The notes beneath the pieces are model-generated. The model was not told the DNA's origin and ran no database searches. It saw only the letters and a list, made by a program, of their open reading frames with translations. From positions 1 to 64,000 of the forward strand of contig NC_016521.1 of NCBI RefSeq assembly GCF_000236905.1: DNA of 64,000 bases, given 5' to 3'. Positions 1,928-35,341 of this stretch are shown one piece after another (the first letter of the stretch is position 1; each line of letters starts with the position of its first letter). The stretch comes from Tetrapisispora phaffii CBS 4417 (lineage: Eukaryota > Ascomycota > Saccharomycetes > Saccharomycetales > Saccharomycetaceae). The translations under genes and the position numbers were made by a program.

Positions 1928-3780
1928 TTAATTATAAATAACATAGTTTATGAGGTTTTTTATATGATATGTTTTTGTTTAGTTCAGTTACCTTTGAGAA
2001 TCAACAACAACAATAATATTCTTTTAGTAAAAAATAATTAAACTAGGCTGTCATAAATACTTAATGGCTGAACAGGAAATGAAATTCAATATCAGTTGAG
2101 AAAATAAAAAAATAAAAAACATCCAGTTTTTATATTAACATGAACTGAAGAATCTATTTCTTTAAGGGACTTTATAACTGTAATTAACTGTCATTTACTA
2201 GCAAAATAATTTGTTCACTGATGGTTGCTTTTTTTTGAATTTAACTCTGTAAGCACATACTGTTTATCCGCTGGTCAATTCTCATAAATGGTTTTTTTTC
2301 ATTTTACGTTATAATCTCCAAAGTTTAAACTGTTTCAACTACAACTAAAACTTCTTACTGTAACAAATATAGTCAAGATAATTACTATATTTACTTTTTT
2401 CAATAAAGCATTTATTTCTTTCTTTTAAAAATTAGCACAAATACGTACGAACACAGTTGATGTCATTTCCAATTATGCAGTTGGCTGCTTCACCTGAATG
2501 AAAATTTATTGAAGGTAGATATGATTTCTAGCAACAACAAAGTGTGATAAGTGCTGCAAAAAGTGGCAAGAATTGACCTATACGAGATTAGAAAGTGAAA
2601 TCATCAGAACTCAGCAGTGGTCTAATAATCTGTTGCTAGTCTATAATGTCTTGAGTTACCAGGGCTTCACCTTGTTGCAGTAGCGAACATAAGTATTTTT
2701 GGACGCGCCTATTTCTAATGAATCGGTTGTTAAAACGTAACTGATATTGTTTCACGAATTCTTCTCACTAATTGACTTTTCGTTGCGGCGTAAGAGAATT
2801 TCGAAAACGTTTCAGATTCCGGAACGCTCATTAGGATGCTCTCAGAAATCACGTCACCATATTCATAATATATAGCACTGCGAAGATCTCATTGTTGAGG
2901 TTTCGCGGCTTCTGGTTACCATGAAACCAAACGCAGAACATTAAATTTGCTTTGTGCTAAGTTGGCCACAAATATCACGCGAGGTATTTTATTTCCAGTC
3001 TGGTTTGTTCTACAGAACGATATCTTAGAACACGACCTAGACGTTAAAAATTGCAGCTTACGATTGTTGTGTTTTAAATAAGCGTTGAGAAATCTTCGTA
3101 CAATTCGAGTTTTGAATATAAAAGAACAAACAATTCTGGTGATAGGCTAGAAATCGTGTTCGTAAAAATGGCGTATGGTATCCTATAGAACATTAGTAAG
3201 GCTAATGAACGCAATAGTAATGTTTAGGATGTAAAACTAGTAATAGCTCATGTCAATAATACTGAAATAGATGTATAAAATACTGGTACAAGTTCAATAG
3301 TACCATTAAGTAATCCATTAGCTAGTTATAGATAGAGGGAAATAGAGCAGACATGAACTAGTATTCGCACTGTATATATTGGTAATAATATATTGACAGA
3401 ATGCAATCTTTACGTCGACATGATTTTATGTTCAATAAAAAATATATAATTAGTGATATAGAAAGTACGGATAACAGTTCACCTTGATTCTACGTCATAT
3501 AGAACTTAACAAAATATATGTAATATTTTACTCGTTATAGACATTCTTCTATGTAAACTCCAATAATAGGTATATCTCTCTTGTGTTAATTTATATTTGG
3601 ATATACCTTATTATCAAAATATTTGGTTGAATTAAATCTTGAAATCAACAATTACAATATATATTATACTTCAAACACAACATACAAATGCTCCCTTGTA
3701 TAAAATATAACGGCTCTCTTGAATAAGAGTATTCTGTAAATTTTTATTAATATAACTTCTCTTAACTTATTTCTTATTTT
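1928..3780. other. Intergenic, largely diverged repeat relics
   Basis: No gene. Bases 1928-2600 show nothing recognisable. Bases 2640-3060 align loosely with 5820-6170, 6590-6910 and, more weakly, 15890-16100; shared landmarks are a CTTGAGTT block, a TTC-rich GAAAA-type block and a CTTCTGGTTACCAT-like block. Bases 3095-3425 contain an inverted copy of the element seen at 541-625 and 7000-7260. The pieces look like old solo LTRs or subtelomeric repeat units. No terminal boundaries could be fixed by eye. Confidence 0.4.
3095..3425 (-). repeat. Dispersed subtelomeric repeat, inverted copy
   Basis: Read on the minus strand, this segment follows the plus-strand order at 7000-7260. A CAGTGC/ACTAGTTCAT core comes first, then a block around TACTATTGAAC and TGTACCAGT, then a TTAGCCTTACTAAT block. 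Another inverted partial copy is at 5205-5370 and a partial direct copy at 541-625. Similarity is clear but imperfect, so the copies are old. It may be an LTR relic or a subtelomeric unit that travelled with the neighbouring secreted-protein genes. Confidence 0.5.
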
Positions 3781-4720
3781 TTAGAAGTAAGGACATACCA
3801 AAGTCCAAATATTGTATTTAAATCCAATTATTTTATCCCATCTGACAAACTTAATAACAGCATACCATGTCCCTTCGTGAGTTTCTCTACTACACCATGC
3901 ATCCATATCACTTCTTTGTGCCTCTTCTAAGCTTAATTCAAGTCCCCATGCTATGGTGTCACGAGATGCTGTGGTATCACAATTTTTACCTGTCGTCCAC
4001 GATGATACTGATATAAGGTATGTAACAGTTGTCCCATCATTCCGTTTTACGTCAACCCATTTAGTTATACTACCACATGAAGTATTCTGTGAAAATTGGA
4101 AGTTATTGTTACTTGGTAAGAAAGTGACTTGAGCTAATAATGATCCCCTTAGAACATTTAACAATACTAAATACCACGATGTTTTTTTAACTATTGAATA
4201 CAGCTTACCTTGAACATAATATCAGGTGGTCGATGATAAATTATACCAATAACCAGCTTCACAATCAGTTCTTTTTCTAATCATTGAATTGTCATTTGTA
4301 GCAATATTGTTTAGTATAATGGAGACAGAGCCATTATTAAAAATCAATTTTTCTGTACCTAGAATTAGAAGTAAATTTTCTACCTCGGTATCTATTTCAT
4401 CGTTCATCAAGTCTCGTTTTGAGAGCGTCAAGTTATTATTCTTTTTGTTCAAAAAATCCTTTAAATCAGATAATTTAGCAGTAACACCCATGCAATCACT
4501 GTCTGACATAAATGTTTCATTAACTCCTGGCATCATACCAAAACTGAATACGGTATTCCCTGTGTAAGATTACCCCATTTTTAATCTTGTTCAGGATTAC
4601 TATTGTTAGAAATTTTTGCATTCGGAACATAATTATCAAAACCAGTTGCACGACAGAGTGAATTAGAAACCAATAACAGGAAGAGATCAGTTTTGTTTGT
4701 AAAGATATATTGTAATTCAT
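3781..4720 (-). pseudogene. Broken killer-precursor-like secreted protein gene (copy 2)
   Basis: The 5' end (4720 downward) encodes a hydrophobic leader like a signal peptide, then the frame is lost before 4560. From 4536 the reading frame resumes and carries a Lys-Arg site, an ILGTEK motif identical to that of the intact copy at 1052-1927, and a further basic site. It is then cut by a single in-frame TGA at 4222-4224. The same frame continues past that stop down to 3781, through a Cys-containing part with a KNCDTT block and a TWYA segment near the end. The same KNCDTT and WYA landmarks occur in the copy at 9511-10440. The N-terminal Cys module of the intact copy is missing. Whether the one stop is real or a base-call error cannot be settled here. 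Confidence 0.6.
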
Positions 4721-7700
4721 TATTTATGAATTTTTATGCAGTTTTACTGAAAAATTATATAAAACATTAAAGAAACAATTTGATTAAAACCGATTTTTAT
4801 AAATTCAGGAGCTCTATTGTTATTATTCTTAAAATTTTCAAGCTTTTTATACTTTTCATTTTTAATATGTTGGATATATTCTTTCATTTCAAAAATTCAA
4901 ATATTTAAGAACATTATTTTACTTCAGATACTTTCATCTCTATTAAAATTTTTTGGTTAGGGCATTAATATTTCATTTTTAAATGGTGCTGTTACAAACA
5001 ACATTATAAATTCTGAACACATGTGCCAATTGGTAAACTTATGATACCTGAATTATTAAATGATACTCAAATAAAACTTCTTCCACATTCAAAGAAGAAT
5101 TCTCTTAAGTAATACTTCTGCTTGTTACTATCTGGGTCGTATTCTGAAATATCATTCTGTCAGACAAATACTAAAATGGACTCTTAAATTTGTACTATAT
5201 AAAACGACACCGAACATCCTAAAATATTAAAGTACAGAAGGTATTACGATGTATGTAAGCAATAGTATGAAAATTATATTTATAAAGTGTATAAGAAATC
5301 GAGCAGATGTGAACTAGTGTTCGCACTGTATATATCGGTAATATATTTGACTAAATGGAATATGTATGTTGGTTGCAGCAACAAGTTGAAAACCTAATGC
5401 CAGAAAAATATTATCCATTTATAGCATTACTAGTTCTGAGTTCTAATGGTTTTCAATATTTTAATATTACTATGGATCCTCGTATGAGGACAAATTTCAT
5501 CAGATTTTTACACTAAATACTTATTACTATCCATACAGTTGTCGGAAATTATATTTGATACCAACCAACCATATAATGACAAATATTAAAAAATGCATAA
5601 TTAGTAAAGTATCAGTATAATGCCTGTAAGGATTTGATACAGATCATAGAGCTGTTAGGTTTCGAAATATTTCAAGTATATACAGGCATGGACCGTTTAT
5701 ACATATCTCACAAGTTTCGATAGGTTAGATTGAATCAAAAAAGTTTCCTATAATTGATATTCGTTACTGCGGCAAAAATATACATAATATATTTATTAAT
5801 AGTTTGAGGTGATAACTATCCTCAACTTCTTAACAATAAGTTGCTCTGGTACTGTGAACGTATCGTTAATAATTACATATATCTGCTTCTCATAGGTAAT
5901 TTATCAAACGAATACACCATCGCAGCGGATAGAGAAGTTTGAAAAATTTTTCAAATTTTAAAGATCATGTGAGAAAATTTCAGAACACCAAACTTATTTT
6001 TGCTACAAGACTTTTTCGCTTCTGATTACCACATAAATAACTGCATAACATTATGTTCGCGTTACTCTTCATTACCGAATAATGCAGGAGCTTTGTTTAC
6101 AAATAAGTAAAGTTGCTCTGACATTTTCAGAGTAAAATGCGTGAGGTATTTTATTTTCAATTACAATTAACAATGCCCATTGGACAAAGTACTTCTTAAC
6201 TTTGGCATTACTAACTGGGAAGTCTAACAAAGGTATAATTAATTTTTTTGGTCAATTGATGCAACCAATTATGCAGTTACTCTTTTAGAAAGTAAGCTTA
6301 GCCGCAAGGTTGATGTGCATATATTCTAAGAGTTTTTTAGTTTCTTGCAACCACATTTTATTTTTATTAAGATATTATTTAAAACAAGCATTTCAGTACC
6401 GATATCACATAGTAAGTTCACATTCAATAAGACGATGTTTTAAATGTTAATGTTGTGTTCCTTTTTTGTTAGTAAACTGTACATAAGAATTCCATATACG
6501 TTCTGTACATATATATTTGAAACCCTAATAATCAGTGAAATGAATATTAACTTACAAGGTATAGGCTTTAAGAGAAGCTACAGAGATGATAATTTCTTGA
6601 GTTAGGGCTTCGAACTATTGTTGTATTAGATATTAGTACTTCACTAATGGCAATAAATTCCAACCGAAGTCACGTGTTGTAGAAGCTACATTTTTATCAC
6701 AGAAACGCCCGTTGCGAAACTTTTCGCGCAGTGCAGCCACAGCATAAAAAGTGTTCAGTTTTGAAGCGAGCGTCTGAGGTCTCAGATATCTGCGTACAAT
6801 GATCCTTCATGACCCAACAAGAATTGCTATTTCTTGAGGTTCTCTCAGCCATTTGTCACCATAGTAGGTTGGACAAAATTTTTATTCGTAAGTAAATATC
6901 ATACACAGCATAGGATGCAGACGCCCTTGTTACCTGGTCACTGAGTGAGTAACAACATACGCAGAAGGACAACGACCTGATAGAGATATTCAGCGGATTT
7001 CCGTTAATATAATATTATCAATGCATACAGTGCAAATACTACTTCATTTCTACTCGGTTCTGTTCTGTATATAAGTAAATAATGCATTACGCAATACTAC
7101 TATTGAACATGTACCAGTCTTTTACGTTTATGGCTCTGTGAGAACTACATAACATATTGCTATTCCAGCTAATAGCCTTACTAATATTATATAATATAGA
7201 CCACGCCGTATACCGCCCTGAAGGATATCTCAAAACACGATCTAATCGTTAACAGTGTTAGATATATATTGTAGAATTATAAATCAATTGGATTTTCCTG
7301 CACATACCTCTAAAATTGTTGAGTACCTCGTTTATGGTACATTTCTGTCTTTAACTGAGAACAAACCTTTATTAACTGTGCTCAGGGTATCTAAGGGTAT
7401 AACTCTCCTTATCCGAAACAATACTATGCATTAAGAGTCTGTTGTAAGTATAAAGTATCGTACAACCAAATATTTAATATCAATTTCAATGTCAGTCAAC
7501 GACAGAGGCATTGAAGCACTCAATTTCGTTAACGCTAAAAAGTAATAAATAGCCTTGCTCGAAGATTACTGACAATATTCGGACGCTCGCTTCGAAATTC
7601 GAAATTTTCTCGGGCTCTCTTCTTTGGTGCAGGAAATACGGTTTCTAAAAATGCTATTTCGCAGAGGGCAATAGATGAAAAACAGTTGCAACCAAAAATT

Positions 7701-8043
7701 GTCATGTTCCTTACAACCACAAATTGAAGCCTTATTAGTCTTTTTAGCAAGATAAATGTATCTGAGTCCACTGAGACATGTATGGAACCTCAGAAATTCT
7801 TTCCAGATTGTTTTGCAATTCGTTTGATCAAACGATTATATTATTCCAGAAGAACATCATGCAAGAACATCTCCCATGAATTTACTGAAGAAAGCAAATT
7901 AATGACTGAAAAGTTGGTATCAATTCTACAATATTTTACGATATAAGTTCTTGTATATTTACGGAAGTTCACATGTTACTTTTCGCTGGAGATAGCTGAT
8001 GGTTGATAAAAAAATAAGAAACAAGAAATCAAGATACCATAAA
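4721..8043. other. Intergenic, repeat relics
   Basis: No convincing gene. Bases 5205-5370 hold an inverted partial copy, and 7000-7260 a direct copy, of the dispersed repeat described at 3095-3425. Bases 5820-6170 and 6590-6910 are diverged copies of the second repeat type at 2640-3060. The short minus-strand frame at 7535-7771 lies in similar repeat-like sequence and has no features of a protein family. Confidence 0.4.
7000..7260 (+). repeat. Dispersed subtelomeric repeat, direct copy
   Basis: Contains in order TACAGTGCAAATACTACTTCA, a TTCTGTATATAAG block, TACTATTGAAC with TGTACCAGT, and AATAGCCTTACTAAT. The same blocks appear in the same order on the minus strand at 3095-3425. A trailing AACACGATCTA...CGTTAAC block recurs near 3028 and 9240. 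The mosaic suggests several rounds of rearrangement. Confidence 0.5.
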
Positions 8044-8484
8044 ATGAAGTTGAGTAATATTTTTGGAATTTTAGTCACGCTCCTAGTTTGTGTCTCAGGG
8101 TCATTTCCATACTATGATCAATTTGCTTTAACTACTACATCATGTTTATATCAATATTTTGATGTTGAGGACCCAGTTAAATATAAAATTGCATGGTGGG
8201 GTTCATTTCTAGCGTCCCCAGGAGGACCAATTAGATGGATTGAAAAGATGCAAGATACTTGTGACGCTTGTAAAGCTGACCATAAAGATCCTGAAAATAC
8301 TGATTGTGAAGATGGAATATTTGATTTAGTCACAGGTGCCATTCAAAATGTTGTTACTGGGACAATGGGTTGGAATAGTGGATTAAGACTTAATAATGCA
8401 TTGTTTGACGGTCACCTTAATAAAAGAAATTTTGTTTTACTTGCAGCAGTACTAATAGTCTGGGTAGCATATATATGGGATTAA
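8044..8484 (+). CDS. Secreted Cys-module protein, truncated killer-precursor-like (copy 3)
   Basis: Starting from the ATG at 8044 gives 146 aa with a clear signal peptide at residues 1-20. An upstream in-frame ATG at 7999 would put a basic 15-residue leader before it and is less likely. The body matches the first module of the intact copy at 1052-1927: a WWGSF block (compare LWGAF), C-x-x-C at 73-76, Cys88, a Gly-rich hydrophobic stretch, and Lys-Arg at 127-128 where the other copy has Lys-Arg at 112-113. After Lys-Arg only a hydrophobic tail of about 16 residues remains before the stop. Downstream DNA to about 8972 still holds decayed coding frames for the missing C-terminal part. The short product might be expressed, for example as an immunity-like fragment, but that is speculation. 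Confidence 0.5.
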   Translation: MKLSNIFGILVTLLVCVSGSFPYYDQFALTTTSCLYQYFDVEDPVKYKIAWWGSFLASPGGPIRWIEKMQDTCDACKADHKDPENTDCEDGIFDLVTGAIQNVVTGTMGWNSGLRLNNALFDGHLNKRNFVLLAAVLIVWVAYIWD

Positions 8485-12298: not shown

Positions 12299-13213
12299 AT
12301 GTTTATTAGTATTATTTCATATGGACCATGGAGCATAAAAGGGTCCAGTACAAAATATTCTAAAGAGTTAGTGTATGGTGAAATTGATGACTCTCAACTC
12401 AGCACTATTTTTTATCAACTGGGAATTAATTATAATGAAAGGAGCTTTACCAAACGAATTCCTTCAGCCATAAATTTTATGCTTGAGCAATTCAGAGCAG
12501 AAACTAAAGTAATAATTGCAATTGGAAAACAAAATACAAGTACCCTCATAATACTGGCACCATGTTGGATAAATTCCAAAAAAAAAAACTCAGTCTTGAA
12601 CATTGATCTGGAGGAAGTGAATAGGGTGACAGTTTCTAAAATAAATGCCATGGAAACATACGCACCAACTATTTTTCCAGATTCAATGGAAATGGGCACA
12701 CTCACACAACAGAATAATTATGTAACAGAAATAAGAAATATAAACTTTGTTACAATTAGAAGTCTGAAAAAATACTACCCAATTATGTACATAAATTGTT
12801 CAAAAAAAGACATTACACTGTCAATGGAACATTCTAAATATTGTACACAATTCTTTGATGGATTAATGAAACACAGTCCTTTTAAATATGTGAGCCTTCT
12901 GCGATATCCAATCCAGTACGAAATGAAGATGGATGGTGTAGTAAGGAGGGAAAAGATAATTAAGTTTTCTAGCAATGAACATCGTCTTGGAAATATTGTC
13001 CTAATGTGTAGAAATCGCTCCCAGAACAGATATGAAATTATTTCCCAAAGTGAAAATGTTTATTTGAAAGAAGAATATATTAAACGAGTAGGTGATTATA
13101 GATACTATAGGACTATAGGAACTTTGACAGCAGCTTCTAGACCGGAAGATGATGATTGGAGATTTGAAAAATTCGCCCAATTACCCACGTATTATGAAGC
13201 GATGACAACATAA
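12299..13213 (+). CDS. Gene A1: unrecognised ~304-aa protein with C-terminal LPxY motif
   Basis: Intact frame with an ATG at 12299. No signal peptide and no convincing membrane helix; hydrophobic beta-strand-like segments alternate with charged ones. It is a clear paralogue of gene A2 (19807-20732) over nearly the full length. Shared blocks include VYGEI-x-DS, INY-x-ERSF, APCWI/TPCWI, SKIN-x-M, MGTLT/LGTLT, SPF-x-(Y/F)VSLL, YP-x-QYE, IKF and a Tyr-rich end. The C-terminus ends in LPTYYEAM, where A2 has PPTYSEIM; L/PPxY is the ligand motif for WW domains of Rsp5/Nedd4-type ubiquitin ligases. A small alpha-arrestin-like adaptor is one possibility, but I do not recognise the fold. It converges on gene B1 with 21 bp between stops, and A2 is arranged the same way with B2. 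A run of ten A near 12582 stays in frame. Confidence 0.75.
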   Translation: MFISIISYGPWSIKGSSTKYSKELVYGEIDDSQLSTIFYQLGINYNERSFTKRIPSAINFMLEQFRAETKVIIAIGKQNTSTLIILAPCWINSKKKNSVLNIDLEEVNRVTVSKINAMETYAPTIFPDSMEMGTLTQQNNYVTEIRNINFVTIRSLKKYYPIMYINCSKKDITLSMEHSKYCTQFFDGLMKHSPFKYVSLLRYPIQYEMKMDGVVRREKIIKFSSNEHRLGNIVLMCRNRSQNRYEIISQSENVYLKEEYIKRVGDYRYYRTIGTLTAASRPEDDDWRFEKFAQLPTYYEAMTT

Positions 13214-13234
13214 AGAGCAACATATTTTATTTTT

Positions 13235-14430
13235 TTATATAATATCTTCGTTACAAACTTTATGTTCTTCAACTCTAATATACCAATCATTTCTCTTCAT
13301 CCATCTACAGCTTAATATGTAGACAATATCATTTATATACCATATACTTAAGCTCAATATATAAGCAAAAATACCACTACTCAGTGAAATCCAGAACTTT
13401 ATGTCATACAGTATAGACTTATGGTCCTCATACTTATTATTAATAAAATCTATAATAACTATAATAGCAGATATTACCATACCTATAATAGATGGGTAGT
13501 GTATCATGAAAAATGATGCAAAATATTGTGGATTGACTCTAAGTTCCTTTCGTAAATAGTCAACATCCTCATTTAGTTGCCTAACAAGGTCTTCGTGTAT
13601 TTGTAACCGATCGTTAAGTGTTTCAAGCAATTCTGTTCCTATATCCTCACCTTGTACACTTTCAAATATTATTTTCTTCAATCTTATCCAAATAAATTTG
13701 TTTTTTTGTTCCGCTAAATTCAGATTACCTACATTGGTATCCAGGTTAACAAACATGTATGCTGCCCTTAAAAACAAAAGCCATCTTCCTGTATTTACAT
13801 TTTTTAGATTAGAAGAAATCTTCTTTATTATTTTTATATGTTCAGTTGTCTCATAGGTAAAAGTAAGTAGAATTATAATAAGTTTAGCAAATTTTTTAGT
13901 ACATTTTGCCCTCTCCAATTTCAAATAAAATGGATCGTTTGAATATTTGAGTTTATCGATTAGGTGCGTAAACAATAATTTGTTCATGTGAAATCCATAT
14001 CCTAAGTTTTGAAGTTTTCAGGGGCTCATTCACCCTTAACAATCCATTACTTCTATAAGTGTTTCGTTGGAAATAGTAAAAATATAAGGCTGATTTCTTT
14101 TTTATTCTCAATAATATTAGACTTGCTTTCAAACTTGCAATTATCTTTTTCACAATTTTCTTATCCTCTTCCTGATTATTTATCAGAATTGGAACTTCTA
14201 TTTTCTATAGCAAAGTAAAATTGTGTTTTAATAAAATCATTAAATGTTTTGGCAATATGAAAGTTCTGTTCATTTTTAAATTGCTTTTGTAAATTTCCTG
14301 CATTATCAATAGAAGTTTCTTTTTGTTTATTGTTTTCATCATCTATATTTATATCATGCTCACCAGTCTGGCCTTTATTTATATCTATATTTCCACCTCC
14401 AGTGATAAAAACGTCTTTCGGATAGCTCAT
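13235..14430 (-). pseudogene. Gene B1: coiled-coil, two-helix membrane protein, frame-broken
   Basis: Three overlapping frames together cover what B2 (18156-19805) encodes. They are 14430-14176 (ATG start, acidic N-terminus), about 14190-13953 (basic Lys/Tyr-rich part), and 13987-13235 (a 250-aa C-terminal part). The breaks are near 14180 and near 13970-13985. The last part holds an YETTEH block, a predicted coiled coil (LLETLNDRLQIHEDLV and onward), then two strong hydrophobic helices around 13440-13540 and 13315-13400, and a short charged tail. Blocks shared with B2 include NEPLK, YETT-x-H and NVG-x-LN. The breaks do not sit at the same places as in B2, so programmed frameshifting is unlikely. 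I do not recognise the family. Confidence 0.6.
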
Positions 14431-15070
14431 AGTAGAACACTCTATTCTTGGAAAAATAAATTATATCTCTTTTTGAATGACTTTGTCTTTAAAACTTTTT
14501 TAAATGGCATTATTCAAATATTTGATTCAATATTTTGCAATGAACAAATTTATGTGAATTTTATCAAGATGAGACATCGAATTAGAACCTGTTATATAAT
14601 TTACGTCCTTACATTTTGTGACGCAAATATTTTTTATACTTTTTCTCTCATTTATTGTCTTGTCGCGTTTCCGTAATTTGTTGTTGGAGATAATTTCTTC
14701 CAATTTTAGTTTTTTAACCTAGAAGGAACTGAATCATGCTCCAATTCCATAATTAAATAATTTTAAAAACTCTAACAAGGTTGAACTTCTTACATACCAA
14801 GTTATTAAACATACCTGACAATAAAATATTAGTATTGTGTTCCTTATACTCCTATTGTTTGTAGTAATGTTTCAGTTTTAGTGATATTGTTATGATAAAA
14901 AGCTAACAGAATAAAATAAAAAGAAAGCAATGGAATACCTTCTGATAACAAATGTATATTCAACTTCTTAGATAATTTTTATATAGATATTAGAGAGGAT
15001 ACAACATCTACCTTCTATAAGTTTGTTGATATAGTTCACCAATAAAAGCAGAAACTTCAGTATTAGTGTT
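14431..15070. other. Intergenic upstream of B1
   Basis: Sequence beyond the B1 start codon. The plus-strand frame at 14323-14676 lies largely opposite B1 and its leader and shows no protein features. No regulatory motif recognised. Confidence 0.4.
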
Positions 15071-15079
15071 CTACAAAGC

Positions 15080-15600
15080 TCCTGCTAAGTAGTATTTCAT
15101 TTTGTTACCATAGTGTTGAAAGCTTATGCATGGTTGTACTTGTAAACATCAATATCTGTTTCTCCGTGGACATTTCTATAAATATGTCTATAACCTGGAA
15201 AATTTTACCAATTGATTCCAGCAAAATTATTTTTACTAACATTAGTACTCCCTGAGTTATAAATCTAACCCTTTTGAGAACTTACGCTTATTAATAAGCT
15301 AGATAAAAAATCTGCAGCAGCAAGTAAACCAAAGCTTAAATCATAACTAGCAAGAGCAGGTGCTGGAGCCTTTAGTGCCTCTGCCCCTATTGCAGCCAGT
15401 GCTGTTGGCGAGCATCCTTGAATTCACAATACATTAACAATACAAAATTTAAGGTCGAAGGTGGTACCAACACCATCCACTGATACTGCCTGCCAGTCAA
15501 CTCTTTTCGTAAGAATATGACTTATATCATTAGATGACCTGGATATTAAGGTAAGATTGTTATTAGTTTTTATAATAACCTATTTATCAGAATTTTGTCT
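15080..15600 (-). pseudogene. Decayed gene fragment with Lys-Arg site, family unrecognised
   Basis: One minus-strand frame reads almost continuously from about 15600 to 15100, interrupted by a few isolated stops. It contains NLTLISRSS, a Lys-Arg followed by VDWQAVSVDG, an Ala/Leu-rich hydrophobic stretch with a Cys before it (about 15310-15420), then GYRHIYRNVHGETDIDVY. The consistent single frame broken only by point stops is strong evidence of a recently dead gene. The dibasic site followed by a hydrophobic domain resembles the secreted precursors nearer the telomere, but no direct similarity to them was seen. Confidence 0.5.
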
Positions 15601-18155
15601 CGATCTTTTGAAAGAATATCAGTCAGTAATGTATAGATGAGGTTAAAAAGGCACACTAAATTCAATAGTACAACAAAAAACCTCAAAATCTATGTGGAAT
15701 CAAATATTCCTCGTTTTATATCTTGGTAACCTCTTCTTTGTCGATAATTCTGAGTGCCATATTAAGTCAATGATCCGGTGACCAAAGAACTATTTCCTGT
15801 ATAGTATTTAGAATGAAGACAGTAATGAATATTATTCTTTAACAGTAGCAATTTACAATTTACAATCAGTCGCTAGTTGCAGCATAAGTGCACTTTTTGT
15901 TGATATATTCTCTTCCATTGTGGCATGAAGAGGACTTTGAAAAAAGTTTCAAATTTCAAAGTGTGAGCAGCTTAGAAGCTGTCAGAAATACATATTCATT
16001 AATATACTTCAATAAGTATATAATTAGATGTCTACTTCTTAAGACTTTCTCGGTCATTGGTGACCATATAACCAAGTCCATAAGTCCTTCTCGTCCTTCC
16101 TCCTGTATAGGTACTCGAATATCATGCATATGTTATTTACTATTTAGGAATATTGTCTGGAAGTAAGCAGTGCGAAGTAGTTTCTTCTTAGTCGTGAGTA
16201 GTTAAAACGCACACTTCACTACACAGTTTCATTAAGAAGTAATCTTCGTTATATTCGTAATTAGACTAGGAAGCTAAGTGTCGAGCAACTCGTCAGTGTA
16301 CTGAAGTAATCAAGTCTTGCAGTCTTTTAGTACATACTTGACTGGTATGGTCATTGAAAAAAGCCATTAATAGAAAAACTTACGTTCTATGGAAGCTAAG
16401 CACTCGTTATAAGCCACTTTGTTATTCACTAGTTAGTAAGTAATTTCTAGTGGTTATCGCATATTATCTTGTTTTGGCAACTACGTATAAAATATTTAAA
16501 TCAAAATTGCTATTTTGAGTGAAAAGAAAGCTAAACTTCAGGATAAAAGTGAGAAACGTACTACGCCTGCGAATCGTCACATTAGTAGATATCACATTTA
16601 ATTTAATACAATAAAGTATTTTCACAGTATGAGAGATAAAACCCAGACTAGATGGCTTTAAAGTATTGAAATAAAAATATAGTATTTGATTAATCTTTTT
16701 ATATCTTATGCTAAGTAGTGCAGCACAAGTTATTGCAATGCCGTTACATTTAGACTTGGAATTGCTATTTTAAGTGAGTTTCACGCCAAAAATCCAATTT
16801 ATATGGAAGTAGTTCGGTGAAGAGTACTTCAGCTTCAAATGGAGGACTAATTGAGCCGGTAAATCAGGTATTAAAACCGTGTAATATCTGTAAAACAATA
16901 ATCTGGCCCCAACTTTAACAAATTTTTAAGATCTGGTTATAGATCTAATAAAAAGTAATTCTTAATTTAGAAACAGGTCTAATTTGATGTGACTCAAACC
17001 GGAACTAATAAAGTATTCAATTACAACTTTATCTTCAAATTTGATATTAATGATGACTTTTCAATGAAGGAGGAAATTTCCAGAATAGTGTAGCAAATAC
17101 ATTTCTAAAAGATAGTACCGTTAGATGTAAAGGTGCATACTTTGGATAAAAAGTTTTGACAATCATAAATGACGTTCTTATTGTTTTGTAGTAACCTGTG
17201 ACAGACTCAATTTTCAGATGTATTGCTATTAGGAAAACTGAAAAAACAAGATTGTTGAATAAAGGCAATTTAATACATAAGCAGTCATATACTAAACGCC
17301 GTAAAGGTGATGTACTAATCAGTAATTTGTAACAATTATTATGCAGCGACAAAGAACCTCAATTGAGTTGGTAGCTAACAATTTTGGCACAAATAATAAT
17401 TAAAAAATTTATGTCCTAGCGATATTAATGTTAATTGCACTGAGTTTTTGGGATTTTAGTTCTAACATTTTTCAAATATTGTGTATATAAATATAACTTA
17501 AGCTCGTCACAGGTATCTCGAATGGAAAATACGATAACTATCTATCCTTACTAATGCAACAATAGCATCGGTGTATCGCAAACTTATTGATATTATGAAA
17601 TATTGGCTTGTTTACACATTAGGGAGCATACAATTTTATGATACTAGTGTTCAGTATAGTTACCAACAACATGTTTTGGTATAAGATATATAAACATATT
17701 AATTTGACGTAATAAAGTAAACAATAACTTTCTATTTGCATAGTATTTGATAATTTAATTCATAATCCTTTTTGAACCACAGTTGAGAGAAACCTCTTTG
17801 AAACTTTTTTTCTCCCTTCTAACATATTTTGGATTGTTCGATTACAACGTTTCCATTTTGTTACTTACAAAAACTTATGACATTACAATATGCTTTTGTG
17901 TGACCGTCAGTGACCTGTGTTAACATAAGTGTCTTAAATGTTAACACTAGTGATTTATCCGTTGTGCTTTATTAATTTACTTCACGCCCAGCTGGTCGCG
18001 CGACAGCGCCCTGGGTACCTTAGAAGCTTCCAAGTGTCACAAAAGAATATTCAAAACGACAAGGTTTCTAATCATTAAGTTAAGGATAAATATGTACTCT
18101 TTCATAATTACATTGATTTATTGGACAATTCTCAAAACTCAAATATATTGAGTAA
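15601..18155. other. Intergenic with repeat relic
   Basis: No supported gene. Bases 15890-16100 resemble the second dispersed repeat type (2640-3060, 5820-6170), sharing a GAAAAAAGTTTCAAATTTCAAA-like block and a TTGGTGACCATA block. A minus frame at 17047-17352 and a plus frame at 15888-16166 lack any family features. A CpG-rich patch near 17985-18020 is listed separately. Confidence 0.4.
17984..18018. promoter_or_regulatory. GC-rich patch with palindromic core upstream of B2
   Basis: CGCCCAGCTGGTCGCGCGAC followed by AGCGCCCTGGGTACC. The core GTCGCGCGAC is a perfect 10-bp palindrome and the flanks CCCAG/CTGGG are reverse complements. It lies about 150-200 bases before the first B2 codons in otherwise AT-rich DNA. 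It may be a regulatory site, and nothing ties it to a known factor. Confidence 0.3.
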
Positions 18156-19021
18156 CTTAAGAGTGATAGTGGATATATTAGTGATACTGTGAGGAGCTTT
18201 AACAGTGGAAGCGATGAGGCCAATGAAGACAGCAATATAGAATCACGAAATAAACAAAACGTCACTGCTTTTGAGATTGAAGATGCAGTAAGAAATAGTA
18301 ACGAGACTGAAAGAATGAATGACAATATTGGTACTGATACTATTAACAGGGAAATCAGCGGTATTGCTGATGCAAACAATTGTGATGATAGAAATGTCAA
18401 ATGTCAAATTGCAGAAACCTATGACGGTTTAATTGATTATCAAGTTCAAATTATTAACGAGATCAGAGGGAATAATCAAAACCTTATAATTAGTGACAAA
18501 GAAAAACAAATAACTAGAAAAAAATTAAAAAAGAGCAAAAATCTTCAATTGTAAAATATTATTATTTTGATAATAACACAATGTCGATTTCGGGATTGAC
18601 GAATTGGAATGAACCTTTAAAAATACTAGTACTTTATATATGGAATTCCGAACACAACATCGTTCTTTTCTCGCCAAATTTGAAACCTAACATAGATTGT
18701 GAAAACGATAGTTTATATCGAATGATAAAAGATGATTTGCTGGGCGAGTCATATGCAAAGCTATTCCCAACATTGTTAGGTTTCAATTATGAAACGACTA
18801 AGCATATTGCACTATTGGAGCAAAGCTCTCAACGATTGGTCAATATAGATAACAAAAGATTAACGTTGTTTAATAAGAGCCACTTATCATTTCATAAAAT
18901 TGCAAGACAATGTAGGAAGACTAAATGTTGTGAGTACTAAAAATTATGGGTTTGGAAAAAGTTCAAAGAACTGGCGGTTACTGGTAAAGAAAACGAACTT
19001 TTAAGTTCTGAGTGGTATATA

Positions 19022-19653
19022 GAAATTGAGAGCAGATTGGAAAAATATGAAAAGAGGGTTAGAGCGTTAGAAGTTGCTGTTATGGAGTTACATCAAAGAT
19101 TCAATTGTGCTTCATTAAACTTTATTTTTTCTCGTTAAATCATTTTCCTTCGGCAATAGCAACGCTGGCAGCCACCTTAGACTTCCTTATCAGTAACCTC
19201 TTGGAAGAAGGAAGCGATGGTAACAATAAATTAAGTTACAGCCAAATTCCTCAAATAGTTATTGTTTGGGTTGCTGTATTCGTACTGAATTTGGTGATTT
19301 GGTATTGGCCTAATCTTATACGCTGTANNNNNNNNNNNNNNNNNNNNGAAATTGAGAGCAGATTGGAAAATATGAAAAGAGGGTTAGAGCGTTAGAAGTT
19401 GCTGTTATGGAGTTACATCAAAGATTCAATTGTGCTTCATTAAACTTTATTTTTTTCTCGTTAAATCATTTTCCTTCGGCAATAGCAACGCTGGCAGCCA
19501 CCTTAGACTTCCTTATCAGTAACCTCTTGGAAGAAGGAAGCGATGGTAACAATAAATTAAGTTACAGCCAAATTCCTCAAATAGTTATTGTTTGGGTTGC
19601 TGTATTCGTACTGAATTTGGTGATTTGGTATTGGCCTAATCTTATACGCTGTA
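19022..19653. repeat. 306-bp direct duplication flanking a 20-N gap (probable unmerged contig overlap)
   Basis: Bases 19022-19327 and 19348-19653 are the same 306-bp sequence around N at 19328-19347. The only differences found are AAAAA versus AAAA near 19045/19371 and six versus seven T near 19128/19454. Two contig ends covering the same DNA and differing by homopolymer counts is the classic signature of pyrosequencing-type assembly. A real tandem duplication is the less likely alternative. Confidence 0.85.
19328..19347. other. Assembly gap (20 N)
   Basis: Run of 20 undetermined bases inside gene B2. Because the flanks are duplicates, the real gap length may be zero or negative. Confidence 0.95.
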
Positions 19654-19806
19654 TCAAAAGAAGATGGGGGAAAAAAAAGGATGGTTTATTAAAGTTATCG
19701 ATTATAAGAAAGATAACATATATGGTATATAATATTTTTATTGATATGATATATAATCACTTTTTATGCTATATAGAATTTAATATTAACATAATGGTTG
19801 GCTAAC

Positions 19807-20732
19807 TCACAATGTTGAAGTTCCGGGCATAATTTCGCTGTATGTTGGAGGGTTAGGATAGCGGCGTGGTTTCCAGTCGTTGTTAGTATTTGATTCAGCT
19901 ATAACAAATCCCATTTCTCTATAATGTCTACAATTAGTTCTCTTCCTTATGACACCCTCTTTGAGAAATAATTTTGCATTTTCCACACCACTGCCATATC
20001 TTCTCTCAGCTATATTTCTACAAACTTCTATCAGAGTTACAGGATTAGGTGAATTACCAGCAAACTTAATCAGGCGTTCCCAACGAGCTGTCCCAGACCT
20101 CTTTAATTCATATTGGACTGGATAATCAAGTAGACTAACAAAAATAAAAGGACTATATTTTAGCCCATCTTCGCAGCATTGAACGCAATATCTTATAAGT
20201 TTCATTGAACGGATTGCATCTTTCTGTGTACAGTTAATAAATATAACTGGAACATAAGTTTCCAGATTTCTGACAGTAAAGAAAGCCGTTTTTAGCAGAG
20301 GTGACACACACTGCTCCTGTTCAGTCAATGTCCCTAGCTCCATACGGTCTGGATATAAGGTTGGGGAAAAAGTATTCATTGTATTTATTTTGGATATTGT
20401 GGTGGCATTTATTTCTTGTAAATTGAGATTCAGGGTCGTTCTTTTCTTGGCACTGCTGATCCAGCAGGGTGTTGGAACTAGAAGTGTATTGCTTTTATCA
20501 TTTCCAACAGCAACAATTACCTTCTTACTTGTTCTAAACATGTCCAATGTAGCAGTAATTGCAAGAGGAGTCTTCTTTGAAAAACTTCTCTCTTGATAAT
20601 TTATGGCAACTTGGTATAAAACAGCACTAAGATGCGAATCGCTGATTTCTCCATAAACATATCTAATGGATAGTTGACACTCCAAGGCAAACTTTTGTAA
20701 GAACCAGTAGAACACTTTTTAAGAAATAACAT
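19807..20732 (-). pseudogene. Gene A2: paralogue of A1 with C-terminal PPxY, 5' end frame-shifted
   Basis: The long frame (20715 to 19807) has no ATG before its conserved VYGEI block. The nearest in-frame start would be a GTG at 20715 directly after a stop. A second frame opens with ATG at 20732 and encodes a leader with PWS, matching PWS in A1, then would need one base of frame change near 20655-20680 to enter the long frame. From there on A2 is intact and aligns with A1 to the end, finishing in NPPTYSEIM, a perfect PPxY motif. Its stop lies one base from the last B2 stop codon. With only one apparent lesion, in a locus with clear base-count problems, A2 may be functional in reality. The function is unknown; see A1 for possibilities. 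Confidence 0.6.
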
Positions 20733-23379: not shown

Positions 23380-24477
23380 TTAAAAAATTAATCTCTCACG
23401 TCGTGGTTTGGAGCAGGTGTGACAAATATCAGTTTGAGAAGTGGAGGTGGTGTTGATATTCTTGTTCATTTTCATGTATTCTACTTGCTGCGGATGGATC
23501 GAAGATGGCTTCGATAGTATAATGGGGTGATTGTGAGAAGTGATCTCTAATGGAAGCATCATCACCGTTCAAGGAGCTTAGTATGTAATTGATAATAATT
23601 GGTTCTAAGTGAAAATATTCCTCAGGACGAATTGGATTGATCAATGCACGAATTATGGAAATGAAAATGAATGCAGATTCACCGCCATTATAATTTAGGT
23701 TTTTGAGTTTATTCATAATATTAGTGGAGCTGTGAGCAGTATTGGCTAGAGCCATAGCTTCTTGAAGTATATGATAAGAGTCTAAACCTTTATTATAATC
23801 ATCTTGTAGTTCCTGGGGATAGAACTGAACAAGAACAAAGTGTTGAAACAGTGAGTTGAGACCTGAAATGTCATGCTCGGAGGGAGGTGTTTAATTTGCC
23901 CGTGTGATGGTGGAATGAGGTGTTGATATCCGTATTGGGCTAAGTGGCCAAATAAAGCTGTAATCCACTTGTAAAACGCATTTGTATTGAATTATCAGGA
24001 ACCGAACGATAGAAATAAGTAGAATGGTGAGAAGGTGGTGTTAAATGTTCGTTCCTATGAGTGCCATTAGATGGCGTAGAATTTGTACCCAGATAAAAGG
24101 AAGTTGGTAAGCTTGATAATGTGCCTTTCTAGAAATTGCGTTGGAAAGGCATTTTGGTTTTTGTACGGTTTAACTGGGATGTACTCTCCCATATGATTTC
24201 TATGATACATTTGGGCACCGTTATCTTGTAATGGTTGAGGAGGTAAGGTGGAAGAATGTGGCACATAGCTATTAGCCGTTGGTGTTTCTCTTTTGTTTTC
24301 ATCAATTTTTGTTGACTCATCATTTTTCAATGAATATTCGGCAGTGGCAGTGGAAGCGCCCATCAATTGTTCATTAATATTGAACTTATTGAATCTGTTT
24401 GTTAAAGAATCGGTGGTGTCATTTTTATGATGCCTTGGATCTAAATCAACAACAACGTGCCTTTTGTCGTGTTCCAA
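23380..24477 (-). pseudogene. Decayed retrotransposon Gag-like gene
   Basis: A chain of minus-strand frames beginning at ATG 24477 reads like one protein of about 360 residues with at least four frame changes. It runs from a polar N-terminus with Pro-rich SSTLPPQPL and EYIPVKPY, through a PPSHHSTYFYRSVPD block, a WITALFGHLAQYGYQHLIP helix-rich block at about 23900-23970, and FVLVQFYPQELQDDY to a long alpha-helical part (23755-23429). It ends in a CHTC pair in another frame near 23400-23415. A polar Pro-rich head, then a helical domain opening with a W-I-x-x-L pattern, and a terminal Cys pair resembles Gag of Ty1/copia-type elements. No protease, integrase or reverse transcriptase follows and no LTR pair was found. 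Family assignment is tentative. Confidence 0.45.
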
Positions 24478-34396: not shown

Positions 34397-35341
34397 TTAA
34401 CATTGAGTGAAAACTGTAACAGTGTTTGTTTCAGTTACGCTCACAACAGCAGTCGTGGTGGTTTCGTCAACCATATAACTAGTAGTAGATATATCAATAT
34501 CACCATCAGCTTCAACAACAGCATCATAAGAGACAATCATTTTCATCATAACACCATGGTATTCTACGCTGGTAGTGTATGCAGCAGGGACAGAAACTGA
34601 TTGAGCAGTAGAACTTGTTTTCGATGACGATACTGATGAAGAAGTAGTAATAGATGAAGATGCTGAGGATGAGGCTGAACCTAATGAAGATGAGGATGGA
34701 CCTGATGAAGATGAGACTAGAACTGATGAAGAACCTGGGGTTCTCATGAAGTAAATGGTAGTGGTAGTGGTGAGGTCATCAGTACCGACAGCGGTGGTGA
34801 TTAAGGAAGAGTACAAATCATCGTAAGAACCGGTCCAGGCAGTAAGGGAAGTAGTACGGACAATGTGAGCTGGTGTCTTGACATAGTAGATAACATTTTG
34901 AGTTTCAATACCGTCAGCACCAGTGACAATGGCAACGGAAGTGTCATAAGTAGTGGTGTATGTGAAACCACCGTTTCTTAAATCAGTAGAGAAGCTGACT
35001 GGACCTGGGGTTCTCATGAAGTAAATGGTAGTGGTAGTGGTGAGGTCATCAGTACCGACAGCGGTGGTGATTAAGGAAGAGTACAAATCATCGTAAGAAC
35101 CGGTCCAGGCAGTAAGGGAAGTAGTACGGACAATGTGAGCTGGTGTCTTGACATAGTAGATAACATTTTGAGTTTCAATACCGTCAGCACCAGTGACATT
35201 GGCAATGGAAGTGTCATAAGTAGTGGTATAAGTGAAACCACCGTTTCCTAAAACGGTAGAAAATTCAGTTACTGTTTCTGTAGCGGCTTTAATTAAAGCT
35301 GGAAATATCACAGCTGATAATGCAAATAAATTCATTTGCAT
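34397..35341 (-). CDS. Small flocculin-repeat cell-wall protein
   Basis: 314 aa, starting MQMNLFALSAVIFPALIKAA, a signal peptide. Residues about 24-205 are two 90-residue repeats rich in Thr and Tyr (TYTTTYDTS, VTGADGIETQ, VKTPAHIVRTTSLTAWTGSY, TTTTTIYFMRTPG), which match the repeat style of FLO-type flocculins (WTG-x-Y/F, VTG-x-(N/D)G, RTP). A Ser-rich stretch of about 40 residues follows, and the protein ends in VSVTETNTVTVFTQC. No PA14 lectin domain is present and no hydrophobic GPI-attachment tail follows, so it is either a secreted or disulfide-linked wall protein or a 3'-truncated flocculin. The two repeat copies are nearly identical at DNA level, so repeat number is likely to vary between strains. 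It sits between the two iron-uptake genes. Confidence 0.75.
   Translation of the reverse strand: MQMNLFALSAVIFPALIKAATETVTEFSTVLGNGGFTYTTTYDTSIANVTGADGIETQNVIYYVKTPAHIVRTTSLTAWTGSYDDLYSSLITTAVGTDDLTTTTTIYFMRTPGPVSFSTDLRNGGFTYTTTYDTSVAIVTGADGIETQNVIYYVKTPAHIVRTTSLTAWTGSYDDLYSSLITTAVGTDDLTTTTTIYFMRTPGSSSVLVSSSSGPSSSSLGSASSSASSSITTSSSVSSSKTSSTAQSVSVPAAYTTSVEYHGVMMKMIVSYDAVVEADGDIDISTTSYMVDETTTTAVVSVTETNTVTVFTQC
34733..35272 (-). repeat. Two tandem 270-bp (90-codon) repeats inside the flocculin-like gene
   Basis: Bases 34733-35002 and 35003-35272 are near-identical, differing at scattered single bases outside a long identical core. The unit is in frame (90 codons), so recombination between copies changes protein length without breaking the frame. 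Confidence 0.85.

What the first reader, a model, noticed from the sequence alone, without database searches (positions are those of the whole stretch)
12299..20732. A duplicated, mirror-image two-gene module (A and B) of unknown function
Gene A (12299-13213 plus; 19807-20732 minus) and gene B (13235-14430 minus; 18156-19805 plus) occur as two tail-to-tail pairs in inverted order. The stops are 21 bp and 1 bp apart. A1 and A2 align nearly end to end, as do the recoverable parts of B1 and B2. Keeping two unrelated genes together through duplication suggests a linked function. One is a soluble protein with a WW-ligand motif and the other a coiled-coil membrane protein. A selfish or toxin/antidote-like pair, or a membrane receptor with a ubiquitin adaptor, are both conceivable. 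I recognise neither protein.
Basis: partly seen in the sequence, partly recalled or inferred. Interest (0 to 1): 0.75.

Follow-up and report, generated by a model that had tools for sequence, protein, structure and literature searches.

The report
Subtelomeric paired genes, PY-motif and membrane
Near the chromosome ends of the yeast Tetrapisispora phaffii, two unrelated genes of unknown function sit tail to tail and have been copied together many times; one carries a likely ubiquitin-ligase docking motif and the other is a membrane protein, so they may work as a pair.

Summary
The window is the left end of a Tetrapisispora phaffii CBS 4417 chromosome. A1/A2 and B1/B2 are real paralogues in two tail-to-tail pairs (stops 21 and 1 bp apart). 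The arrangement recurs at two more A/B loci (one degenerate) and seven loci of a diverged A'/B' subfamily: 11 loci, all near contig ends. A and A' are homologous (20-28% identity). B and B' are not detectably homologous, though both carry C-terminal transmembrane segments. A proteins have none; 8 of 9 carry a C-terminal Leu/Pro-Pro-x-Tyr motif. A, B and, weakly, A' show coding constraint. B2's breaks and the 20-N gap are probably in part assembly error, so that B2 is dead is unproven; four B' frames are open. Best reading: A is a Rsp5-type adaptor acting on membrane partner B (inferred). A passenger explanation (block duplication of chromosome ends) is nearly as likely. Most novel reading: a two-gene poison/antidote pair restrained by RNAi, since the genome has Argonaute and Dicer genes and palindromic B' hairpin loci.

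The parts
12299..13213 (+). A1: soluble 304-aa protein, C-terminal LPTY motif
   Evidence: ORF; 43.9% identical to A2 and 37% to C11 A3; no TM segment, LPTY 6 residues from the C-end
13235..14430 (-). B1: membrane protein gene in three successive frames; the last 250 codons hold both TM segments (residues 164-182 and 200-218 of P0003)
   Evidence: genome search with it finds B3 at C11 (E 4e-27) and the C4 copy of B2 (E 1e-17)
18156..19805 (+). B2: membrane protein gene in pieces, interrupted by a 20-N assembly gap
   Evidence: the stretch before the gap is 97.3% identical to the left end of contig C4 over 1.87 kb (window about 17.2-19.04 kb)
19328..19347 (.). run of 20 N; the ~305 bp on its two sides are the same sequence, a probable unmerged contig overlap
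   Evidence: (304/306 identical)
19807..20718 (-). A2: 303-codon open frame, C-terminal PPTY; no in-frame ATG before codon 60

Best explanation
A and B form a lineage-restricted, subtelomeric, convergently transcribed gene pair. A is a soluble protein of about 300 aa whose C-terminal [L/P]PxY motif recruits the Rsp5 ubiquitin ligase. B is a protein of about 390 aa (B' copies) with a large soluble N-terminal part and two C-terminal transmembrane helices. The proposed mechanism is that A binds B, or B's compartment, and brings Rsp5 to it, so that B is ubiquitinated and sorted or degraded; A thereby sets where and how much B acts. The close tail-to-tail layout should make the two transcripts overlap and adds a second, RNA-level antagonism in a yeast that has RNAi genes. 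Shown: gene pairing, homology, coding constraint on A and B, PY motif, TM segments, presence of a three-WW-domain ORF, Argonaute and Dicer genes. Inferred: Rsp5 binding, A-B contact, the direction of the effect, and transcript overlap.
For: Pairing: A/B tail to tail at C2 left (two), C11 right and, degenerate, C2 right; A'/B' tail to tail at C1, C2, C3, C4, C6, C7 and C14 ends. A-A' homology: genome search with the C6 A' finds A2 at E 3e-12, A3 at 1e-7 and A1 at 2e-4. The motif is present in 8 of 9 A-family frames, each with a shuffle probability of 0.7-4.6%; its tyrosine is the last invariant column of the nine-row A/A' alignment. TM segments: two in B1 and in the four open B' frames, none in the nine A frames. 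Constraint: three B pairs have pN<pS with z -6.4 to -7.0; A2/A3 dN/dS 0.31, with dS saturated for the other two A pairs. Rsp5 candidate: 825-codon frame with three WW domains. Precedent for PY/Rsp5 control of a membrane protein: PMC10721834 (passages).
Against: No binding, expression or phenotype data. One A' (C3 right) has lost the motif while keeping its frame. A' and B' histories are partly decoupled: the 5' part of A' is 100% identical between C4 and C6 over ~297 nt, while the middle of B' is only 66-73% identical between them. A' is telomere-side in all seven A'/B' modules, so linkage may be passive. B' constraint was not tested for significance (dN/dS 0.58-0.77 over 6 pairs). AlphaFold models were too poor to use (mean pLDDT 34.7 and 35.4).
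Confidence: 0.35

Rival explanations
1. Passenger linkage: A and B have separate or no important functions and stay together only because chromosome ends are copied as blocks by ectopic recombination.
For: The nearest edge of each of the 11 loci is within about 18 kb of a contig end, and in 10 of 11 A is on the telomere side. Pieces of A', A and B' also occur alone. The C2-left and C4-left ends share a 97.3% identical 1.87-kb block. dN/dS is high among A' copies, 0.44-0.92 over 15 pairs, and B' copies, 0.58-0.77 over 6 pairs.
Against: The two window modules are in opposite orientation. A/B modules are old (A 37-49% identical, synonymous sites near saturation) yet B or a B remnant is beside A in 4 of the 5 A-subfamily places found; the fourth remnant is weak. 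A' pairs show pN<pS with z below -1.96 in 6 of 10 pairs tested.
Confidence: 0.3
2. Two-gene poison/antidote element: B is the membrane poison, and A neutralises it by bringing Rsp5. In the wtf drivers of fission yeast the same trick is built into one gene by alternative starts.
For: B' halves form palindromes able to make long hairpin RNA in a genome with Argonaute and Dicer genes, as hairpin RNAs silence drivers in Drosophila simulans (PMC10292708 and PMC10317233, title and abstract start in listing only).
Against: No evidence of toxicity or segregation distortion. A and B share no sequence, unlike wtf poison and antidote. Subtelomeric families without drive are common (recalled).
Confidence: 0.12
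3. Killer-toxin immunity or tolerance module: A/B alters membrane-protein sorting so that the cell resists the killer toxins encoded in the same subtelomeres.
For: DUF5341 (K2/KHS1-type) killer-like ORFs lie on the same fetched stretches as two A'/B' modules (L039, E 6e-64, about 1.2 kb from A'; L019, E 1e-53). A second killer-like fragment family occurs near A/B at C2 left (window 7996-8481), C11 right and C2 right. T. phaffii is a killer yeast with subtelomeric killer genes (PMC7888664 passages).
Against: A killer-like gene also lies on a stretch without an A/B or A'/B' module (L042, weak match), and the distances from the modules vary (about 1-5 kb); no sequence feature links A or B to toxins.
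Confidence: 0.08

Closest known systems
wtf killer meiotic drivers (Schizosaccharomyces)
   Same: [L/P]PxY motif, membrane protein, multicopy family with many broken copies
   Different: Two separate convergent genes instead of one gene with two starts; A and B unrelated; no drive shown
Rsp5 adaptor proteins of budding yeast (arrestin-related and others; recalled)
   Same: Soluble protein with a PY motif expected to dock on Rsp5 WW domains
   Different: No arrestin or other adaptor domain found by Pfam; found only in one species here, and subtelomeric
Subtelomeric membrane-protein families of Saccharomyces (DUP240/DUP380-COS; recalled)
   Same: TM proteins, multicopy, species-restricted, subtelomeric
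   Different: No DUP family listed in Pfam scans at E up to 10 for B1, B3, the C4 copy of B2 and two B'; those genes are not kept in tail-to-tail pairs with a PY-motif gene (recalled)

Membership tests
wtf-type PY-motif killer drivers | PY motif ([L/P]PxY) on the neutralising partner | tested here: met
   8 of 9 A-family frames; motif definition from PMC10721834
wtf-type PY-motif killer drivers | poison and antidote share their membrane sequence (same gene) | tested here: not met
   A-B comparisons within a 17-protein set give only E>0.1 matches; A has no TM segment
wtf-type PY-motif killer drivers | kills spores that lack it | not testable with these tools
   needs crosses
Rsp5 adaptors | PY motif and a Rsp5 homologue in the same genome | tested here: met
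   (825-codon frame with three WW domains; its HECT domain was not tested and the name Rsp5 is recalled)
Rsp5 adaptors | arrestin or other known adaptor fold | tested here: inconclusive
   no Pfam match above cut-off; the structure model is unusable
Rsp5 adaptors | physical binding and cargo ubiquitination | not testable with these tools
   needs a pulldown
DUF5341 / K2-KHS1 killer proteins | DUF5341 domain | tested here: not met
   absent from the A and B proteins scanned; present in neighbouring ORFs

The most novel reading that the evidence does not exclude
A two-gene selfish system of chromosome ends in a budding yeast: B/B' is a membrane poison and A/A' a trans-acting PY-motif antidote that hands it to Rsp5. 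The A gene family is paired either with one membrane family that has diverged beyond recognition or with two different ones. The host keeps B' in check with palindromic hairpin-RNA loci through its Argonaute-Dicer pathway.
Probability: 0.07. Interest if true: 0.9.

Novelty: new variant of a known kind. Interest (0 to 1): 0.55.

Why it matters
If A controls B through Rsp5, this is a two-gene counterpart of the PY-motif switch known from single-gene drivers. It would be testable in a laboratory yeast that, unlike S. cerevisiae, has RNAi genes. Even on the passenger reading it is a paired-gene family of the chromosome ends of T. phaffii that I found described nowhere: the locus tags searched for are in no paper of the held open-access library.

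Tried and rejected
Known-family searches. Pfam gave nothing above cut-off for the A, A', B or B' proteins scanned. PDB sequence searches gave only weak matches (best E 0.5 for A1, 0.49 for the A/A' profile, 0.25 for B', 0.056 for B). A CorA-like stalk plus two TM reading of B was considered by eye; the Pfam scan listed no CorA match for the B pieces, and two B' gave only sub-threshold MgtE matches at E about 0.04. Dropped.

B versus B' as one family: hhalign probability 0.1, E 0.62; best blastp 0.02-0.05 in a 17-protein set. Not supported, not excluded.

Structure: AlphaFold of A1 (8-row alignment) and of a B' (4 rows) gave mean pLDDT 34.7 and 35.4. No fold search was made on them, because matches would be meaningless.

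"All B are dead, A survive" as a poison-decays-first signature: rejected as evidence. B2 lies at an assembly gap and differs from its C4 copy by 28 mismatches and 22 gapped positions, many of them single-base lengths. The C4 copy is open for 274 codons up to the contig end, though its N-terminal stretch is in another frame. Four B' frames are open, and A2 itself lacks a proper start. Against this: B1 and B3 do each have at least one frame change outside long homopolymers (seen by eye), and B' is broken at C3, C6 and C14 (and, for C6 and C14).

Programmed frameshifting: in B1, B2 and B3 the breaks lie at different places, so I rejected it for B. For B' it was not tested; the C6 and C14 copies break at the same site, which common descent explains as well.

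Linked evolution of A and B: in the A/B group the order of similarity agrees (A2-A3 closest, B2-B3 closest), but with three lineages this is weak. In the A'/B' group it is disturbed by mosaicism.

Literature: searches listed no description of the pair by title, abstract start or locus tag. Searches searched tags; one search used tag stems, some of them guessed. The library is open-access only. Of the papers cited or consulted, passages were read of PMC7888664, PMC10721834, PMC5499181, PMC13404059 and PMC12930445; PMC10292708 and PMC10317233 were seen in a listing only.
Full report
WHAT THE WINDOW IS. The window is G000:C2:1-64000 of a 12,115,070-bp, 17-contig genome. Database names of relatives read "TPHA_..., Tetrapisispora phaffii CBS 4417". 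A review gives this strain 12.1 Mb and 16 chromosomes (PMC5499181, passages). The finding lies 12-21 kb from the left end of the contig.

THE OBSERVATION. Gene A1 (12299-13213+, 304 aa) and an open frame A2 (19807-20718-, 303 codons) align over 278 residues at 43.9%. A2 has no in-frame ATG before codon 60, so it is truncated, starts unusually, or carries a sequence error. B1 and B2 are broken into successive frames but are homologous to each other and to copies elsewhere. The stops of the two pairs are 21 and 1 bp apart.

QUALITY OF B2. The 20-N gap at 19328-19347 is flanked by the same ~305 bp on both sides, 304 of 306 columns identical, differing only in the length of two homopolymers. The stretch before it (about 17.2-19.04 kb) is 97.3% identical to the left end of contig C4 (28 mismatches, 22 gapped positions over 1869 columns). 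In the C4 copy the B frame is open for 274 codons to the contig end, although its N-terminal stretch lies in another frame. So B2 cannot be called a pseudogene from this assembly alone. B1 and B3 have breaks that are harder to blame on homopolymers (seen by eye).

THE FAMILY. A third A/B pair is at C11 right (L017: B3 3085-4325+, one frame change; A3 4355-5263-, 302 aa; stops 29 bp apart). A fourth, degenerate, is at C2 right (L018: A remnant 4375-5090-, and a weak B remnant 3870-4139+, 28% over 96 residues, E 7e-5 in a search of 16 fetched stretches; the whole-genome search with B1 did not list it). An isolated A remnant is at C8 left (L020:3795-4652-; no B found beside it). Searching with A' and B' proteins found seven further tail-to-tail pairs, at C1 left and C14 left and at the right ends of C2, C3, C4, C6 and C7. 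C4 and C7 have both genes open (B' 387 and 386 aa, A' 292 aa each). At C2 right both are open but B' ends in an alternative frame, shared with C1. At C3 and C6 A' is open and B' broken; at C14 A' is open except that its first ~17 residues lie in another frame, and B' is broken; at C1 B' is open and A' broken. Spacing of stops at the nine loci measured is 1, 21, 29, 90, 97, 120, 121, 121 and 136 bp. The 120 at C2 right is to the readable tail frame of B'; to the stop of its open frame it is 197 (coordinates). Unpaired pieces: A' at C12 left, C12 right, C4 left and a second, shortened one at C2 right (B' was not listed there, whose counts are lower bounds, and I did not fetch the C12 or that C4-left site); a B-like gene without A at C11 right (L017:6950-7582-; no A found near it); the C4-left B2 copy, whose partner would lie beyond the contig end; and three B' palindromes (below).

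HOMOLOGY. A and A' are homologous: genome search with the C6 A' finds A2 at E 3e-12, A3 at 1e-7, A1 at 2e-4; identities are 20-28%. B and B' are not detectably so (hhalign probability 0.1). They resemble each other only in build: a long soluble N-terminal part, and two C-terminal hydrophobic segments in B1 and in the four open B' frames; the broken pieces of B2 and B3 show one or none above the threshold. Either the partner diverged faster than A, or A is paired with two different membrane families. The second would be remarkable, but it is not shown.

RESTRICTION TO ONE SPECIES. Searches of 5.77 billion proteins with A1, with the B' profile and with the A/A' profile returned only T. phaffii proteins (1, 4 and 7 hits, the window's own A1 among them). 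The search needs shared 5-residue words, and A2, A3 and the C6 A' were not returned, so relatives that are unannotated or distant could be missed.

SELECTION. A1-A3 are near synonymous saturation (pS 0.66-0.76) with pN 0.36-0.41; dN/dS for A2/A3 is 0.31. B pairs: pS 0.70-0.79 against pN 0.43-0.44, z -6.4 to -7.0 over 128-262 codons, three pairs. A' pairs: dN/dS 0.44-0.92 over 15 pairs; z below -1.96 in 6 of 10 pairs among five of the six copies. B' pairs: 0.58-0.77 over 6 pairs, not tested for significance. So A and B have been coding genes under constraint; among the recent A' copies it is weak. A neutral 292-codon A' frame would stay open with probability 0.18 at 0.05 and 0.034 at 0.1 substitutions per site (substitutions only).

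THE PY MOTIF. [L/P]PxY lies 4-15 residues from the C-end in 8 of 9 A-family frames (LPTY in A1 and A3, PPTY in A2, PPSY in five A'). The C3 copy has lost it, and the broken C1 copy still encodes PPSY. Shuffling gives it a 0.7-4.6% chance per protein. The A' copies are close paralogues, so the weight rests on four lineages (A1, A2, A3, A'). The definition Leu/Pro-Pro-X-Tyr as binding site for Rsp5/NEDD4 WW domains is in PMC10721834 (passages). The genome has an 825-codon frame with three WW domains, which I take to be Rsp5 (recalled; HECT domain not tested). An internal LPLY is also present in the six A' scanned.

HOW IT MOST LIKELY WORKS. A, soluble, docks Rsp5 and brings it to the membrane partner B, so that B is ubiquitinated and sorted. 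[quoted passage not shown] cerevisiae (PMC10721834, passages). Whether B is harmful is unknown. The rival that A and B are passengers of duplicated chromosome ends is nearly as likely: the nearest edge of all 11 loci is within about 18 kb of a contig end and 10 of 11 have A on the telomere side, module 2 of this window being the exception.

RNA-LEVEL SIDE. The genome has an Argonaute gene (Piwi domain, 1177-codon frame). Of three RNase III hits, two were fetched: one carries the Dicers_N domain (L045), the other the RNase_3_N domain (L046, taken as Rnt1, recalled). Convergent genes this close should make overlapping transcripts (inference). In addition, N-terminal halves of B' form near-zero-loop palindromes at C6 left (L043:4455-5874, 80.5% arm identity) and C8 left (L020:5169-6578, 77.9%), related to each other (96.5% in one arm), and a more broken one at C6 right (L042, about 3.4-4.75 kb). 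In the 14 stretches scanned for inverted repeats of 100 bp or more, only these three had centred palindromes; four stretches (L019, L020, L039, the first 27 kb of the window) had inverted repeats kilobases apart. The rest of the genome was not scanned. The C6-left one folds as RNA into one long hairpin, -780 kcal/mol over 1420 nt (no shuffle control at that length). No expression data exist here. Hairpin RNAs that silence meiotic drivers are known in Drosophila simulans (PMC10292708 and PMC10317233, abstract starts in the listing).

COMPARISON AND NOVELTY. It would work like a PY-motif adaptor with a membrane client; it is not a member of the wtf family (poison and antidote there share sequence; here they do not). 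I rate it a new variant of a known kind: an expanded subtelomeric family, unusual in being a recurrent convergent pair. Function remains inferred.

Noticed in passing
L043:4455-5874, L020:5169-6578, L042 about 3389-4752: Palindromes built from N-terminal halves of B' (arms 78-80% identical in the two large ones, centred, near-zero loop); candidate hairpin-RNA sources in a genome with Argonaute and Dicer genes.
   Followed up: partly
window about 17193-19042 and contig C4:1-1866: 97.3% identical block shared by the left ends of C2 and C4, with many single-base length differences, suggesting uneven sequence quality at this end; its full extent was not followed.
   Followed up: partly
window 7996-8481: Killer-protoxin-like fragment (label by eye) homologous to L018:7493-8131 and L017 about 1118-1438, so it recurs near three A/B loci; its exact killer family was not tested.
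   Followed up: no
L039:6446-7615, L019:6705-7775, L042:5242-6603: Subtelomeric ORFs with the DUF5341 domain of K2/KHS1-type yeast killer proteins (the L042 one weak, below cut-off).
   Followed up: no
L036 and L044 against L037 and L039: B' at C1 and C2 shares an alternative C-terminal frame; a C4/C7-type tail is still readable in another frame downstream.
   Followed up: no
A'/B' modules at C4 and C6 (L039, L021): Mosaic history: about 297 nt in the 5' part of A' are 100% identical between the two loci and the TM end of B' about 96%, while the middle of B' is only 66-73% identical, suggesting gene conversion.
   Followed up: partly
window 23432-23890: Weak match to Ty capsid protein (PF01021, E 8e-4, below cut-off), perhaps a retrotransposon remnant.
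   Followed up: no
window 34397-35341: ORF with flocculin repeats (PF00624, four stretches).
   Followed up: no
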